NCBI GenBank assembly: GCA_017962175.1
Contig: JAGCVU010000256.1
Location: 1-64,000 of the forward strand
Reading direction: 5' to 3'
DNA length: 64,000 nucleotides
DNA from: Bacteroidales bacterium
GTDB taxonomy: Bacteria > Bacteroidota > Bacteroidia > Bacteroidales > UBA3824
Shown here: positions 6,227 to 11,537 of the stretch, one piece after another
Numbering within the stretch: position 1 is the stretch's first letter
Layout: each line of letters starts with the position of its first letter
The notes under the pieces: generated by a model
The model's input: only the letters and a program-made list of their open reading frames with translations
Database searches by the model: none
Told to the model about the DNA's origin: nothing
Translations under genes and position numbers: made by a program

Positions 6227-6278
6227 AAAAATTACAAAAAAAACTCGCAAATTGTATACAGCATTATCATAAAATCCG

Positions 6279-6286
6279 TATATTTG
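6279..6286 (+). promoter_or_regulatory. -7 box of the candidate RNA
   Basis: TATATTTG, a perfect Bacteroidota -7 box, 257 bases before a hairpin followed by seven T. It defines the likely 5' end of the RNA at about 6292. A well-spaced upstream TTTG is not obvious; TTG occurs at 6252. An 11-bp sequence at 6253-6263 recurs inverted at 6438-6448. Confidence 0.6.
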
Positions 6287-6292
6287 CATTGC

Positions 6293-6549
6293 CGACGTGT
6301 AAAATCGAAGGCAGACATATAGGCGTTACTAAACGCTTTGTTCTCGGCTCATTGAAATTTGGCCATTTCAAAAAAGTAATGCGAGACAAGGCAACGGTGA
6401 TGCCCTCGGATTATGTATTATAGGCATACATACGGTGTGCTGTATACATATTTTGCGTGGGCTAAGGCGTTGCTCGTTCAGCATTACAGGGCAAGGCCAA
6501 AGCCACAATGAGCGGGACGGGCAATTAGTCTAAAACCCGCGCTTTTTTT
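6293..6549 (+). ncRNA. Candidate free-standing structured RNA
   Basis: About 257 bases with their own promoter and terminator and no credible reading frame. Visible stems, in order: GCGTT/AACGC at 6323-6336; a long compound hairpin 6338-6389 with outer arms TTGT-CTCG / CGAG-ACAA (one bulged T) and inner 7-bp arms TTGAAAT / ATTTCAA; a GGCA/TGCC hairpin at 6390-6404; 7-bp arms GCTCGTT / AATGAGC (6472-6478 with 6507-6513, one G-U pair) enclosing a GGC-CAAA-GCC hairpin; and the terminal GCGGG/CCCGC hairpin before T7. It matches none of the housekeeping RNAs I tested by eye (RNase P, tmRNA, SRP, 6S). It sits directly before the Z1 helicase operon, so it may belong to that system. Confidence 0.6.
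6512..6549 (+). terminator. Rho-independent terminator of the candidate RNA
   Basis: GCGGG (6512-6516) pairs with CCCGC (6536-6540), followed by GC and seven T. It closes the RNA before the helicase operon, whose ATG is 71 bases further on. The left arm partly overlaps the AATGAGC stem, so the two may compete. Confidence 0.6.
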
Positions 6550-6619
6550 ATGTAACAATGTTTCTGATTTGGGTTTTGCAGAAATGAGGATTTTACTAAA
6601 CCTAATAATATAAAGACAA

Positions 6620-8095
6620 ATGGCAAAAATTTACAATTCATTAGCAGAATGGGAAAACGCCGTTAAGGTTTATCTTGATAATGATGACCCAATTCCCGAA
6701 CATCTTGCCGCACAGGAACAGCGGTTGCGTGATTTAGAAAAAGAAAAATCCAAAACTCCAATTTACAGCAAATTGGAAGATATTTCAAAGTTTAAGCCTT
6801 ATTCTGAGGTGTTCAAAAAATGTGTCAATGACACAGTTGAGCAATTGCTTGACAATTCAGAGAATGCTAAGCAACCCGGTCTTCTTCTCGGCAAAATCCA
6901 ATGCGGTAAGACCAACACATTTGTAAATATCATCGGCTATGCATTCGACCGAGGTATTGATATTGCGGTAGTTTTCACAAAAGGAACCAATGCATTGGCA
7001 ACGCAGACAACGGCAAGGCTCAAAAAAGAGTTTGCTGTATTTGCCCGCACCGAAAAGATTACAGGATTGCCAGTTGTAGAAGTCTTCGACATCAAAGATT
7101 TGAAAGATGTAAAACTTACCAACGATGAAATCAATACGCAGCACACCATAATAGTCTGCAAAAAAGAGGACAACAACCTGAATTGGCTCACTAAGCGATT
7201 CACCGAAGACAATCCAATTTTGCGCAAAAAAAAGACCATCATAATCGACGATGAGGCAGACTTTGCGTCCATAAATTTCTTCAAAAAAGAGGGGCGTTGG
7301 CATTCTGCGGTAGTTACGCAACAGATTCAAGACTTCATCGATATTCCCGAATATTGCCGTTACCTGCAAGTAACAGCCACGCCGTATGCGCTATTTTTGC
7401 AGCCAAACGATGTCCTCAATCTCGAAAACGGCGTTGTAAAGCCATTTGTTCCGAGATTTACAACAATAGTTCCAACTCACAACAAATACATCGGTGGTCA
7501 GCAATATTTCACAGAAGCACAAGACCCAGAATCGATGTACAGTTACCTTTATTATCCAGTATCAGACGACTGCATAATTAAACTGAAAACAAAGCACTTG
7601 GCGTACAAGAACAAAATCCTTACATTACACAAAATAGAGGGTTTCCGCCGCGCATTGCTTACATATATGATGGCTGCGGTGATACGCAAAATTCAGTCAG
7701 AAGGTGTGCTCAACTATCGTTCAAGTTGCATTCTCCATTTGGACGTAACGATAGACAAGCACGATTGGCAATATATGCTCACAAACGAGTTCTTCGATAA
7801 GATAAAGGAGCAACTCAACGGCGAGCCAATTGCCGAAATAAGCGAGATGATGCAGTCGATATACGAAGATTTCAGACAATCTAACGAGGCTGGCAACAAT
7901 CAAGGACTTATCAATCTCAGATTTCCTGACTACGCCACTGTTATTGACGAACTGCGTAAGGCTCTCAACAATGAGAAATATGTAATCAACTTGGTAAACT
8001 CCAACCAAAGTGTAGAAAACCTTCTCAACGACAACGGACAGTTGAAACTGAAAACGTTGATGAACGTTTTCATTGGCGGCAGCATTCTCGACTGA
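6620..8095 (+). CDS. Z1-domain helicase, first part, cut by in-frame TGA
   Basis: The first 491 residues of what should be a 1102-residue protein. SF2-type motifs are clear: Walker A GKIQCGKT at residues 91-98, motif II DDEAD at 210-214, motif III TATP at 252-255. The family's motif V normally reads GG-x-x-L-x-R-G-x-T. Here it is GGSILD, then TGA (8093-8095), then GITIEN in the same frame, so the stop replaces the conserved arginine (CGA to TGA by one transition). Z1 proteins are ATP-driven enzymes of restriction-like defence systems. A truncated product would keep ATP binding but lose the second helicase lobe. Either the gene is recently broken, the base is a sequencing or strain variant, or readthrough occurs. 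Confidence 0.85.
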   Translation: MAKIYNSLAEWENAVKVYLDNDDPIPEHLAAQEQRLRDLEKEKSKTPIYSKLEDISKFKPYSEVFKKCVNDTVEQLLDNSENAKQPGLLLGKIQCGKTNTFVNIIGYAFDRGIDIAVVFTKGTNALATQTTARLKKEFAVFARTEKITGLPVVEVFDIKDLKDVKLTNDEINTQHTIIVCKKEDNNLNWLTKRFTEDNPILRKKKTIIIDDEADFASINFFKKEGRWHSAVVTQQIQDFIDIPEYCRYLQVTATPYALFLQPNDVLNLENGVVKPFVPRFTTIVPTHNKYIGGQQYFTEAQDPESMYSYLYYPVSDDCIIKLKTKHLAYKNKILTLHKIEGFRRALLTYMMAAVIRKIQSEGVLNYRSSCILHLDVTIDKHDWQYMLTNEFFDKIKEQLNGEPIAEISEMMQSIYEDFRQSNEAGNNQGLINLRFPDYATVIDELRKALNNEKYVINLVNSNQSVENLLNDNGQLKLKTLMNVFIGGSILD

Positions 8096-8113: not shown

Positions 8114-9928
8114 ATGCTCTGTTTCTTTTATGGACGTATACCGCAAAAATTCCAACAAGACACTGTTCTCCAACACGCACGAATGTATGGCAGCCGCAGC
8201 AAAGAGGATATGTCGGTAACAAGACTTTTCACCACGCCAGAAATCTACGAAGTAATGCAAAAAATGAACGACCTCGACGAAAGTCTCCGCCAACAGATAG
8301 AAGAAGGTGTTGTTAATAAAGAAACGCCTACATTGCGCTATCTTGACTATGTTGGCGGACGCATTGTGCCGTGCAGCCGCACCAAGATTGCAATATCAAA
8401 CACGCTGACAATTAAACCCGGTTCACGTTGCGTTGTTACGGGATTTCAGACTGGTCCAAAAACGCAAATTGCACAAACGATAAAGGAAATTGACAACATA
8501 ATCACTTCCACTCCCGGTTACAAGCAAAATGAGATTTTCGAAATAGAAACCGAAGCCGTTGTGGACATAATTCACAAAATTCGTAGCACCTACGTATATG
8601 ACGAACAACCCGACCGTCAATGGCAAAATTTTGGTCTTGATTGGAACGAAAACGATATGATTTCCACCTTGGCTTGGTGTACACGTAAAACTGGCGGCAC
8701 AATGCTCTGCCTACACCACACGGGACTCAACGCTTCGCGTTTCCGCAAAGACGACCCTACAAAATTTATGACCGCTCCTGATACAGGTCGTACTGACTTA
8801 AAACTTGCCCGCGAAAGTGCAATTGACAAGCCCGTCATAATACTCCTCAGAGAGGAAGGCACAACAGAGCAAGGTTGGCGCGGAACTCCGTTCTATTGGC
8901 CAGTTTTGGTGGCGCAGCAAAACATTCAAAGTTCGTATTTCACACTCGACAACAACAAGAAGAAAAAAGAGTACATACCGCTCGACCACAGCATTATTGC
9001 CGACATCAATCCCGAAGAAATGTTGAGCCTTACGCTCGAACAATTGCCATTCGACGATATAGAATCGGGCGAAAAAACATTTGAACTTCGCAATGTCCGC
9101 GACACCACGGCTTCAACATTATTGGAAAAATCCAAACAAGGCGACTTTATTCTCAGTCCTGACACCGACCAGTCGGCACTCACTGCGGGTTTCAACTCTT
9201 TGAACAATGGTATTTTCCCGTTTGTTCCCAAAAAGTTCAAATATCTGCATTTCCGCACCTCACGTGACGGCAAGGCAAACCAAATGCTCGTAGAACTTAA
9301 CCCTGAACAGCCTGTATGTTTCGGCTATTCGCGTCCAAAAAGAATGTATGTTACTGACGTACTCAAAAAGAACCACGAAATCACAGGATTTTCAGACGAT
9401 ACATTTGTAAATTGGTGGTTGGTTTACAACATCCGTCCAATACGCGTTCACCGTTACGGAGAGACACTGCGTTTTATCACTCCTAAGCCATTCAACGACC
9501 CAGGCGAACTCAACCTTGGAATGCTTTGGGACGAAGAGGAAATAAAAACTACTGATGAGAATGGCGACTCAATAGCCACCGCAGAAACACAGCAAGGCTA
9601 CTCTACGGACGAAATCATCGCACACAACAATAATATAACCGTTATTGATATTCCTGAAATTGACAACCAAAATTCAATGTCATTATGTATGCCTATTGAC
9701 GGTGTATATTGGATTGAAGGTCGCAACGGTTATCTTCTCAGTGGTACGGTAGAGTATGGACAAATTGAACTCGGCGACACAATCTACCTCAGCAACGGTT
9801 TGTATGGCGTTGTTGATGAGTTCGACAATAACGCTGCAATTGCCACTCCGGGCGACAAAGTCGGAATACTTGTATCAGGTATCAAAAAAGGAGAATTGGA
9901 CGGCGTAGAAAATTTGATAGTACAATAA
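8114..9928 (+). CDS. Z1-domain helicase, second part, with EF-Tu domain-2-like tail
   Basis: Same frame as the preceding part and uninterrupted from the TGA to 9928; the first internal ATG is at 8114. Residues early in this part (FFYGRIPQKFQQDTVLQHARMYGSR) are the second half of the Z1 helicase core, including the Q-x-x-R-M-x-G-x-R motif VI arginines. A long middle region follows with no family I can name. The last 80 residues (about 525-604) form a small beta-barrel: YLLSGTVEYGQIELGDTIYL, the G-x-V-x-x-G-x-I-x-x-G-D pattern of translation-factor domain 2. Lacking the Walker A lobe, this half cannot hydrolyse ATP alone. Confidence 0.82.
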   Translation: MLCFFYGRIPQKFQQDTVLQHARMYGSRSKEDMSVTRLFTTPEIYEVMQKMNDLDESLRQQIEEGVVNKETPTLRYLDYVGGRIVPCSRTKIAISNTLTIKPGSRCVVTGFQTGPKTQIAQTIKEIDNIITSTPGYKQNEIFEIETEAVVDIIHKIRSTYVYDEQPDRQWQNFGLDWNENDMISTLAWCTRKTGGTMLCLHHTGLNASRFRKDDPTKFMTAPDTGRTDLKLARESAIDKPVIILLREEGTTEQGWRGTPFYWPVLVAQQNIQSSYFTLDNNKKKKEYIPLDHSIIADINPEEMLSLTLEQLPFDDIESGEKTFELRNVRDTTASTLLEKSKQGDFILSPDTDQSALTAGFNSLNNGIFPFVPKKFKYLHFRTSRDGKANQMLVELNPEQPVCFGYSRPKRMYVTDVLKKNHEITGFSDDTFVNWWLVYNIRPIRVHRYGETLRFITPKPFNDPGELNLGMLWDEEEIKTTDENGDSIATAETQQGYSTDEIIAHNNNITVIDIPEIDNQNSMSLCMPIDGVYWIEGRNGYLLSGTVEYGQIELGDTIYLSNGLYGVVDEFDNNAAIATPGDKVGILVSGIKKGELDGVENLIVQ

Positions 9929-9958: not shown

Positions 9959-10519
9959 ATGGAAAATCAACATTTTAAAATGCCAGTCAATGAAGTGTTT
10001 CATATTTCAGGTCGTGGCTACATGTTTTTGGGTTGCATAGAATCGGGTACAGTTGATTTGGGCGACGAAGTTGTTTTGAATAACGGTTTGAAATCGTTTG
10101 TAAATGGTATTGAAACAGACAAAAAAGTTATTGAAAACATTTTCAATATTACAACAGAAAGCGAAATAGTAGGACTTCTTCTCGGTAGTATTGCGCCAAA
10201 ATCACTTACAGATTTTGATAATCTCGTTATTGAAAGCATTGACACAGAACGAAATCATTGCGAAATTTCCGTTACCGAGCAATCGCCGCTCAAAGGCAAA
10301 GGCATCATCGTAAAAGGCAAAATTCTTTCGGGCAGCATTAACGTTGGCGACCCAATAATTTATGCCGAACCAAGCGATGGAATTTTTCAAACTGCCTCCG
10401 TTGACGCTATCGAAACCGACGGCAAATCTGTTGATACCGCCTCACAAGGTCAGATTGTTGCCCTTAATTTCAAAGGTCTGACAATGCGGGCTAAGTTCGA
10501 CAAAGTGATTAAACGCTAA
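9959..10519 (+). CDS. Tandem EF-Tu domain-2-like barrel protein
   Basis: A 186-residue protein with two copies of the same barrel seen at the end of the upstream helicase. Copy one (about 8-90) has FLGCIESGTVDLGDEVVLNNG; copy two (about 100-186) has IIVKGKILSGSINVGDPIIY. Both show the G-x-I/V-x-S-G-x-I/V-x-x-G-D signature of EF-Tu/SelB domain 2. There is no GTPase domain, so it is not a translation factor. The gene starts 30 bases after the helicase stop, in one operon, and is followed by a terminator-like hairpin. It may bind a tRNA- or EF-Tu-like target or act as a substrate adaptor for the helicase; that is inference. Confidence 0.72.
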   Translation: MENQHFKMPVNEVFHISGRGYMFLGCIESGTVDLGDEVVLNNGLKSFVNGIETDKKVIENIFNITTESEIVGLLLGSIAPKSLTDFDNLVIESIDTERNHCEISVTEQSPLKGKGIIVKGKILSGSINVGDPIIYAEPSDGIFQTASVDAIETDGKSVDTASQGQIVALNFKGLTMRAKFDKVIKR

Positions 10520-10537
10520 CTAATTGATTAACATTCA

Positions 10538-10565
10538 GGGCGAGGATTTTTATCCTTGCCCTTTT
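10538..10565 (+). terminator. Hairpin with T-tract, terminator or attenuator
   Basis: GGGCGAGGA (10538-10546), six-base loop, TCCTTGCCC (10553-10561), then four T: a 9-bp stem with one G-U pair. It lies between the barrel protein and the HrgA-type nuclease, and the T-tract ends 12 bases before the nuclease ATG. It could limit nuclease expression from the shared transcript. Confidence 0.6.
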
Positions 10566-10577
10566 AAAAATGAAATT

Positions 10578-11537
10578 ATGAAAAACAAATACACATTCAG
10601 CGACCTTTGCTATGATGTTTTGGCAAAGGAAAACGCGCCTCTAACACCTGACGCTATTTGGAAAAAAGCCGTTGAGATTGGCTTGGACAAGCAACTTGGC
10701 ACTACGGGCAAAACGCCGTCTGCATCTATCGGCGCACGTCTCTATGTTGACATCCGCGACAATGGTGAAGAATCTAAATTTGTTCAGGTTTCCAAACGTC
10801 CCGCCCTGTTTATGCTGCGCGGCAACGACTTGAAAAAAGCCGACATAGAAAAAGCCGTTGAAAAACAGGAAATTGCCGCCGAAAAAATCACAAGCACATA
10901 CAACGAGCGCGACCTTCATCCGCTATTAGTGAAATATGTAAATACAAATCAGCATTTTAAGTGCTATACTAAGACCATCTTTCACGAAAACTCGGCAAAA
11001 AAGATTCAAGGTTTCAACAAGTGGTTGCACCCCGATTTGGTAGGCGTTTACTATCCTTTCAACGATTATGAAACATCAACAACCAACTTGCAGAAATCAT
11101 TATATGTCAATTCGATCAAGATGTTTTCGTTTGAGATGAAAAAAGAGTTGAACTTTGCTCATCTTCGAGAATATTTCTTTCAGGCTGTATCAAATTCATC
11201 GTGGGCAAACGAAGGCTATCTTGTAGCGTTGAAAATCGACGAAGATCCTGAATTTCAAACGGAACTTCAAAGGCTTTCAAACTCATTTGGCATAGGCATT
11301 ATCAAACTTGACGCTGAAAATATTGAAGATTCCGAAATAATTTGTCCCGCCCGTTATCGTGAAATCATTGATTGGGACACTTTGAACCGTTTGGTAGAGG
11401 ATTCTCCCGATTTCAAAACCTTTATCACCAACGTTAACGACAGCATCACCATCAAGAAAGCCAAGAAAAACGAATACGATGAAATACTTGATGACGATAA
11501 ATATGAAAAGCATATCAAGGATAAGAAAATAATTTAA
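10578..11537 (+). CDS. HARE-HTH / HrgA-type restriction nuclease
   Basis: A 319-residue protein from the ATG at 10578 (MKNKYTFSDLCYDVL). A longer in-frame start at 10524 would translate the terminator hairpin and is rejected. Residues 1-78 are a HARE-HTH (HB1/ASXL) winged helix with KENAPLTPDAIWKKAVEIGL. Residues about 110-290 look like a PD-(D/E)xK nuclease: D153 in HPDLVG and E186-x-K188 in FEMKKE, followed by a helix with AVSNSSWANEGYL. The domain order matches HrgA-like proteins and COG2958. It likely cuts or binds modified or foreign DNA and is the probable effector for the Z1 helicase upstream. Confidence 0.78.
   Translation: MKNKYTFSDLCYDVLAKENAPLTPDAIWKKAVEIGLDKQLGTTGKTPSASIGARLYVDIRDNGEESKFVQVSKRPALFMLRGNDLKKADIEKAVEKQEIAAEKITSTYNERDLHPLLVKYVNTNQHFKCYTKTIFHENSAKKIQGFNKWLHPDLVGVYYPFNDYETSTTNLQKSLYVNSIKMFSFEMKKELNFAHLREYFFQAVSNSSWANEGYLVALKIDEDPEFQTELQRLSNSFGIGIIKLDAENIEDSEIICPARYREIIDWDTLNRLVEDSPDFKTFITNVNDSITIKKAKKNEYDEILDDDKYEKHIKDKKII

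What the first reader, a model, noticed from the sequence alone, without database searches (positions are those of the whole stretch)
6253..6549. Free-standing structured RNA of unknown family before the helicase operon
A perfect -7 box (6279-6286), at least five stems in the following 257 bases (including a nested 15-bp hairpin at 6338-6389), and a GCGGG/CCCGC-T7 terminator, with no credible gene. It lies next to defence genes. An 11-bp sequence overlapping the promoter region (6253-6263) recurs inverted inside the RNA (6438-6448). Inference: it may be a guide, an inhibitor, or an element on its own that travels with accessory genes.
Basis: partly seen in the sequence, partly recalled or inferred. 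Interest (0 to 1): 0.75.

Follow-up and report, generated by a model that had tools for sequence, protein, structure and literature searches.

The report
Widespread new Bacteroidales leader RNA
The stretch is one copy of a large, previously uncatalogued folded RNA, found up to about 27 times per genome in gut bacteria of the order Bacteroidales, that sits in front of many unrelated genes and looks like a built-in on/off switch deciding whether transcription runs on into them.

Summary
Window 6292-6549 is one member of a multi-copy structured RNA family of about 230-260 nt. It is in 17 of 18 genomes of the genus (14 copies here, up to 27) and in 45 of 173 sampled Bacteroidales genera. It is almost absent from the rest of the phylum and matches nothing in Rfam 15. 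Covariation is overwhelming (0 of 500 shuffles, two alignments). Copies precede unrelated accessory genes (Z1 helicase operon, methyltransferases, BspA-type and lipoproteins, TerD, small HTH). In 164 of 179 unique copies a same-strand ORF starts within 260 nt, usually 50-90. A sigma-ABfr-type -7 box precedes the RNA. None is enriched between RNA and gene, so the gene must be reached by reading through the RNA's terminator.

Three pairings compete for the terminator. A conserved pseudoknot strand (CUCGUUC) takes the 5' arm. The 3' arm pairs either with that 5' arm or with the loop of a hairpin just before the start codon; that loop covaries with it copy by copy.

Best reading: a cis-acting transcription attenuator with a post-terminator capture hairpin. 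The signal is unknown and nothing was tested experimentally. The 11-bp inverted repeat occurs only in close orthologues and is not a family feature.

The parts
6279..6286 (+). sigma-ABfr type -7 promoter box TATATTTG
   Evidence: TAnnTTTG lies within 150 nt upstream of the core in 129 of 150 copies, against 13 of 170 in a control stretch 300-450 nt upstream.
6292..6549 (+). whole structured RNA, about 258 nt; predicted terminated transcript
   Evidence: Fold z -4.6; family by BLAST and covariance models.
6321..6548 (+). conserved core of the family as found by covariance models R1 and R2
   Evidence: R1 222.9 bits (window is a training member). R2 193.5 bits, E 5.5e-61 (window not among the 35 training sequences of A5).
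6323..6336 (+). helix H1 (GCGTT 6323-6327 with AACGC 6332-6336)
   Evidence: 97.5% of cells paired in A1, 99.3% in A3.
6336..6391 (+). helix H2, pseudoknot CTTTGT 6336-6341 with ACAAGG 6386-6391
   Evidence: 96.7% of cells paired in A1, changes on one side only.
6347..6513 (+). long-range helix H3: GCTCATTG 6347-6354 with CAATGAGC 6506-6513
   Evidence: All six pairs modelled have changes on both sides in A1 and in A3; about 98% paired.
6358..6501 (+). long-range helix H4: TTTGGCC 6358-6364 with GGCCAAA 6495-6501
   Evidence: Six of seven pairs have changes on both sides in A1 and in A3; about 98% paired.
6391..6473 (+). helix H5: GCAACG 6391-6396 with CGTTGC 6468-6473
   Evidence: 99.4% paired in A1, 94.8% in A3; strongly conserved sequence.
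6473..6521 (+). helix H9, antiterminator-like pseudoknot: CTCGTTC 6473-6479 with GGACGGG 6515-6521; overlaps the 5' arm of the terminator
   Evidence: 99.0% of cells paired in A1; 127 of 135 copies pair at 7 or more of 8 positions, with altered pairs in L146 (CTTATCTT/GAGATAAG) and L148.
6512..6549 (+). intrinsic terminator GCGGG/CCCGC with T7
   Evidence: T-rich tract in 133 of 135 copies; helix 7 of A3 87% paired, with compensatory changes.
6532..6538 (+). 3' arm AAAACCC, complementary both to the terminator 5' arm and to the downstream loop
   Evidence: copy-specific covariation.
6562..6583 (+). capture hairpin TTCTG-ATTTGGGTTTTG-CAGAA; loop GGGTTTT 6571-6577 pairs with 6532-6538
   Evidence: At least 6 Watson-Crick pairs in 35 of 98 distinct arms, against 4.2% (maximum 10.8%) after permutation; stem covaries too.
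6620..8095 (+). downstream gene, N-terminal part of a Z1-domain helicase (MZA/type II helicase-like)
   Evidence: PADLOC Helicase_II 1.3e-29 and MzaC 8.3e-7; the Z1 domain lies in the continuation 8114-9928 (Pfam).

Best explanation
The RNA is a cis-acting transcription attenuator, a riboswitch-like leader of the gene that follows it. SHOWN from sequence: it has its own promoter, a conserved pseudoknotted core and an intrinsic terminator; nearly every copy lies just upstream of a same-strand gene that has no promoter of its own; and three pairings compete for the terminator. INFERRED: by default RNA polymerase stops at the terminator and releases a RNA of about 257 nt. When the core folds so that the conserved strand CUCGUUC captures the 5' arm of the terminator (helix H9), the terminator cannot form and polymerase reads on. 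The freed 3' arm is then captured by the loop of the hairpin just before the start codon, which would lock the read-through mRNA in the open state and may also set translation. What drives H9 (a ligand, protein, ribosome or other RNA) is unknown. Because the regulated genes differ so much, the signal is probably a general one for switching on accessory genes (surface proteins, restriction and defence, regulators). The address-like match between arm and loop keeps each leader matched to its own gene.
For: Family with strong covariation (both 0/500 shuffles). Same-strand ORF within 260 nt in 164 of 179 unique copies, mostly 50-90 nt from the RNA end. Downstream proteins share no family. -7 box upstream of the RNA in 129/150 against 13/170 in the control; between RNA and gene 4/135 against 7.1 expected by shuffling. 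T-rich tract in 133/135 and H9 in 127/135, with H9 and terminator sharing nucleotides of the 5' arm. Arm:loop pairing copy-specific by permutation, with matching triplets such as GTGAAGC / GGCTTC / GAAGTCC and GTGAGA / ACTCTC / AGAGTCA. Capture-hairpin stem covaries. Same flank and RNA with a different hairpin and gene, the new loop still matching the same 3' arm (L030 and L041).
Against: The capture hairpin is transcribed after the terminator, so it cannot influence the termination decision itself; its role must come later and is inferred. No transcript data were available. No ligand or regulator is indicated, and the regulon is more mixed than for any riboswitch I know of. About 8% of copies have no ORF of 60 aa or more within 260 nt. 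A few copies lack the hairpin, for example L039 and L212, where the ORF begins within 10 nt of the RNA end.
Confidence: 0.68

Rival explanations
1. A trans-acting or structural small RNA in its own right: the terminated 257-nt RNA is the functional product, and the downstream gene merely profits from leaky read-through.
For: Own promoter and near-universal terminator. Size and conserved unpaired sequence are large for a simple attenuator. Multi-copy sRNA families do exist in Bacteroides (FopS, PMC11697453).
Against: A stand-alone sRNA need not sit 50-90 nt before a same-strand gene in almost all copies, nor keep a copy-specific match to a loop in that gene's leader.
Confidence: 0.15
2. A translational regulator: read-through is constitutive, and the pairing of the terminator 3' arm with the hairpin loop, about 20-40 nt before the start codon, controls translation or mRNA stability.
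For: The hairpin lies just before the start codon and covaries both in stem and in loop.
Against: The T-rich tract in 133 of 135 copies and the overlap of H9 with the 5' arm fit control of termination.
Confidence: 0.12
3. An RNA-guided or recombination element: the RNA or its DNA marks a site where accessory gene cassettes are exchanged, and the arm:loop match is a targeting code.
For: Loci with the same upstream flank and RNA but different downstream genes: L030 against L041 diverge 7-8 nt after the RNA; L044 and L045 share RNA and leader at 93% up to just past the start codon and then differ. Copies lie on plasmids and in a few viral contigs.
Against: No recombinase, transposase or reverse transcriptase was noticed as a recurrent neighbour, and no fixed element ends were found. 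Homologous recombination in the conserved RNA explains the swaps.
Confidence: 0.05

Closest known systems
Riboswitches and other attenuators with an intrinsic-terminator expression platform (for example the pseudoknotted fluoride riboswitch, PMC11077080; the rplJL leader of B. subtilis, PMC4538822)
   Same: 5' leader, conserved folded domain, mutually exclusive terminator and antiterminator-like pairing, cis-linked gene.
   Different: Larger and with several pseudoknots; one class precedes unrelated genes in many copies per genome; has a second, downstream hairpin whose loop captures the 3' arm copy-specifically; no ligand known.
FopS / GibS paralogous sRNAs of Bacteroides (PMC11697453)
   Same: Multi-copy RNA family in Bacteroidales with sigma-ABfr promoter and intrinsic terminator; 12-15 copies per genome.
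   Different: FopS is described as a single-stranded 5' stretch plus a terminator, acting in trans on SusC mRNAs; it was deposited in Rfam, and Rfam has no match here.
Bacteroidales-1, Bacteroides-1, Bacteroides-2 and other motifs of Weinberg et al. 2010 (PMC2864571)
   Same: Structured RNA motifs of the same order.
   Different: Bacteroidales-1 (RF01693) and Bacteroides-1 (RF01694) are Rfam families and give no match. Bacteroides-2 carries no Rfam accession in that paper's table and could not be compared.
Type III toxin-antitoxin loci (RNA, terminator, gene; from general knowledge)
   Same: Order promoter - structured RNA - attenuating terminator - gene.
   Different: There the RNA is a repeat array that binds one toxin family; here the downstream proteins are unrelated.

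Membership tests
Any Rfam 15 family (4227 models) | match at or above the family's gathering score | tested here: not met
   No match in the window region at gathering or at E up to 10 (the E<10 hits are chance-level and far below gathering), nor at the RNA in named relatives L164, L192, L218, L234, L190, L228 and short variants, nor in L293, L284, L282, L291.
cis-acting transcription attenuator / riboswitch-like leader | located in the 5' leader of a same-strand gene without its own promoter | tested here: met
   164/179 copies with a same-strand ORF within 260 nt; no promoter enrichment between RNA and gene, 4/135 against 7.1 by chance.
cis-acting transcription attenuator / riboswitch-like leader | intrinsic terminator and a mutually exclusive alternative pairing | tested here: met
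   T-rich tract 133/135; H9 127/135, sharing 5' arm nucleotides with the terminator; altered pairs in L146 and L148.
cis-acting transcription attenuator / riboswitch-like leader | read-through changes with a signal | not testable with these tools
   Needs RNA-seq or reporter assays.
Riboswitch (metabolite-binding) | binds a specific ligand; regulon coherent with it | not testable with these tools
   No ligand can be tested; the regulon is diverse, which is unusual for a riboswitch.
FopS sRNA family | single-stranded seed 5' end followed by a terminator hairpin | tested here: not met
   Here a pseudoknotted core of about 230 nt; FopS description from PMC11697453.
Type III toxin-antitoxin | downstream toxin of one family (ToxN/AbiQ type) bound by repeat RNA | tested here: not met
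   Downstream proteins share no family; the RNA is not a repeat array.
Retron ncRNA / bridge RNA / omega RNA | linked reverse transcriptase, IS110 recombinase or IscB/TnpB | tested here: inconclusive
   No such family among the most frequent downstream hits, but only the first 25 families per library are shown and upstream neighbours were not systematically scanned.

The most novel reading that the evidence does not exclude
A categorically new regulatory principle: a genome-wide set of paralogous leaders in which a variable arm:loop address, set copy by copy, lets terminated RNA from one locus act specifically on the leader of its own gene (or guide cassette exchange at it), so that dozens of unrelated accessory genes share one RNA device with private keys.
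Probability: 0.15. Interest if true: 0.92.

Novelty: new variant of a known kind. Interest (0 to 1): 0.78.

Why it matters
If right, one uncatalogued RNA class controls many accessory genes (surface lipoproteins, BspA-type proteins, restriction and defence systems, small regulators) across gut Bacteroidales, including Bacteroides, Prevotella, Segatella, Parabacteroides, Alistipes and Muribaculaceae and plasmids of human-gut Phocaeicola. It would reveal a shared signal for switching on the accessory genome, give a ready covariance model for annotation, and add a new element to attenuators: a hairpin beyond the terminator that captures the terminator's 3' arm.

Tried and rejected
(1) Known Rfam family: none, even with lax thresholds. 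(2) The 11-bp inverted repeat as a functional or invertible element: only in close orthologues. Longer inverted pieces upstream of L028, L033 and L056 look like degenerate partial copies. (3) A conserved leader peptide: the candidate ATG frames are not conserved on reading the alignments. (4) Helix H6 on the MAFFT columns looked poor (124/209) because the alignment shifts there; pairwise search and short variants suggest it is real but the statistic is weak (84% against 71% null). H6 would compete with a 5'-domain helix CCGAAGCCC:GGGCUUCGG (at least 9 Watson-Crick pairs in 16% against 2.6% null). (5) A first arm:loop test with a loose score was inconclusive because common arms inflate the null; the anchored test on distinct arms is clear. 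(6) Phage records: the window copy gives no match. (7) Herpetosiphon pattern hit (L216) is chance: no covariance-model match. (9) Literature searches found no description of this family; only open-licence papers are searchable, and predictions such as Fremin & Bhatt (PMC8040213) or the motif Bacteroides-2 (PMC2864571) could include fragments that I could not compare.

Full report
WHAT IS THERE. The -7 box TATATTTG is at 6279-6286, the terminator GCGGG/CCCGC with T7 ends at 6549, and the plus strand folds far better than shuffled sequence (z -4.6). No Rfam family matches, even in a lax scan of 501 bases. The 11-bp inverted match is in the sequence but is shared only with direct orthologues.

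IT IS A FAMILY. BLAST found many copies in the genus, up to 11 in one genome. Thirty copies gave an alignment and a covariance model R1. A second model R2 was built from 35 diverse copies that do not include the window; R2 finds the window copy at E 5.5e-61. In the genus 17 of 18 genomes have it: 14 copies in this genome, 21 and 27 in two others. In a sample of 247 Bacteroidales genomes R2 finds it in 59 genomes and 45 of 173 genera (R1: 42 and 32); copy numbers there are lower bounds because only nine candidates per genome were scored. In 345 genomes sampled over the phylum, only one weak match besides the own genome was seen. Named carriers include Prevotella ihumii, Bacteroides caecigallinarum, Hallella mizrahii, Segatella copri and Paraprevotella xylaniphila, plus MAGs labelled Bacteroides, Phocaeicola, Parabacteroides, Alistipes and Muribaculaceae, and plasmids of Phocaeicola dorei, P. 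vulgatus and B. finegoldii. None of the copies tested matches Rfam.

THE STRUCTURE IS SELECTED. On the 30-sequence alignment 97.4% of cells pair, against 87.8% in shuffles and 36-49% when partners are slid; 19 pairs have changes on both sides, and no shuffle of 500 reaches any measure. On 81 further sequences, found by a DNA pattern and aligned to the model, 94.8% pair, 25 of 35 pairs have double changes (462 cells), again 0 of 500. That alignment is fitted to the model and the pattern fixes some bases of H5, H9 and H4, but H3 and the terminator lie outside it. The long-range helices H3 (6347-6354 with 6506-6513) and H4 (6358-6364 with 6495-6501) covary at nearly every pair. H2 and H9 make pseudoknots with them. 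Short variants of about 160-175 nt keep the outline.

IT IS A LEADER, NOT FREE-STANDING. For 179 unique copies, 164 have a same-strand ORF of at least 60 aa starting within 260 nt, mostly 50-90 nt after the RNA end. The box TAnnTTTG lies upstream of the RNA in 129 of 150 copies, against 13 of 170 in a control stretch. Between RNA and start codon it occurs in 4 of 135, fewer than the 7.1 expected from shuffling. So the gene has no recognisable promoter except the one before the RNA. The downstream proteins share no family. The commonest Pfam hit is BspA-type LRR in 7 of 141; others are ResIII/DEAD helicases, DNA methylases, HTH, Sel1, LytTR, EF-Tu-like proteins and lipoproteins. Defence models match some (type III methyltransferase, DrmD, DpdE, MzaC). 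By a crude heuristic 49% look exported, against 31% of other ORFs in the same loci.

THREE COMPETING PAIRINGS. (a) The terminator: T-rich tract in 133 of 135 copies. (b) H9: the conserved strand CUCGUU(U/C) pairs with the segment GGGACGAG that contains the 5' arm of the terminator; 127 of 135 copies pair at 7 or more of 8 positions, and L146 and L148 have matching changes on both strands. (c) A hairpin lies between terminator and start codon (6562-6583 here), and its loop is complementary to the 3' arm. Over 98 distinct arms, 35 form at least 6 consecutive Watson-Crick pairs with their own downstream region, against 4.2% (maximum 10.8% in 200 permutations) with those of other copies. Examples of 5' arm / 3' arm / loop: GTGGGA/AATCCC/GGGATT; GTGAGA/ACTCTC/AGAGTCA; GTGAAGC/GGCTTC/GAAGTCC; CGGGA/GACTCC/GGAGTCTG. 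The stem of this hairpin covaries as well. Loci L030 and L041 share flank and RNA but carry different hairpins and genes, and both loops still match the same 3' arm.

MECHANISM. Shown from sequence: promoter, conserved core, terminator, cis-linked gene without promoter, three exclusive pairings. Inferred: the core decides between H9 (read-through) and terminator (stop); after read-through the capture hairpin holds the 3' arm. It is transcribed after the terminator, so it cannot take part in the decision; it most likely stabilises the open leader or sets translation. The signal is unknown. The rivals are an independent sRNA with leaky read-through, purely translational control, and a recombination or guide role.

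WHAT IS KNOWN. It works like a terminator-type riboswitch or leader attenuator, but no ligand was tested and the regulon is unusually mixed, so it is not filed as a riboswitch. FopS sRNAs (PMC11697453) are multi-copy but built differently. Motifs of PMC2864571 that are in Rfam do not match; Bacteroides-2 has no Rfam accession in that paper's table and was not comparable. Novelty therefore holds against Rfam 15 and the searchable open literature only.

Noticed in passing
window 8093-8095: The Z1 helicase gene is split by one in-frame TGA (6620-8095, then 8114-9928 in the same frame); related loci L048 and L050 have a single long ORF, so this copy is a pseudogene or carries a sequencing error.
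   Followed up: partly
window 9959-10519: A 186-aa protein with an elongation-factor-Tu domain 2 lies in the Z1 operon (Pfam 2.6e-7), an odd partner for a defence helicase; similar proteins follow the RNA directly in L051 and L054.
   Followed up: no
window 10524-11537: HARE-HTH domain protein (Pfam 7.2e-13), a restriction-associated domain, in the same operon.
   Followed up: no
L313, L318, L320, L321, L325, L327, L046, L055, L062, L066, L067, L122, L172, L178, L197, L228: A small HTH protein (about 70-85 aa, 'HIGxxIKxELxRQGRSVxW') is one of the most frequent genes right behind the RNA; it may be an original partner of the leader.
   Followed up: no
L149-L157: Short variants of the RNA (about 160-175 nt) that lack the middle arm but keep the outer helices and, in several, the arm:loop match.
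   Followed up: partly
L315, L322, L328: Some copies precede DNA cytosine methyltransferase genes (probable restriction-modification loci), including one copy in this genome.
   Followed up: no
L044 and L045; L030 and L041; L031, L046 and L055: Loci with the same upstream flank and RNA but different genes after the hairpin; divergence begins at the terminator, at the hairpin or near the start codon. Short repeats recur at the far end of some variable segments (L031, L055).
   Followed up: partly
L164 1254-1290 (+): An abiF RNA (Rfam RF03085, 47.8 bits) lies just upstream of a copy of this RNA in Prevotella ihumii.
   Followed up: no
L028, L033, L056, just upstream of the promoter: An inverted partial copy of the RNA's 3' part (21-30 bp exact) precedes the promoter in three related loci.
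   Followed up: no
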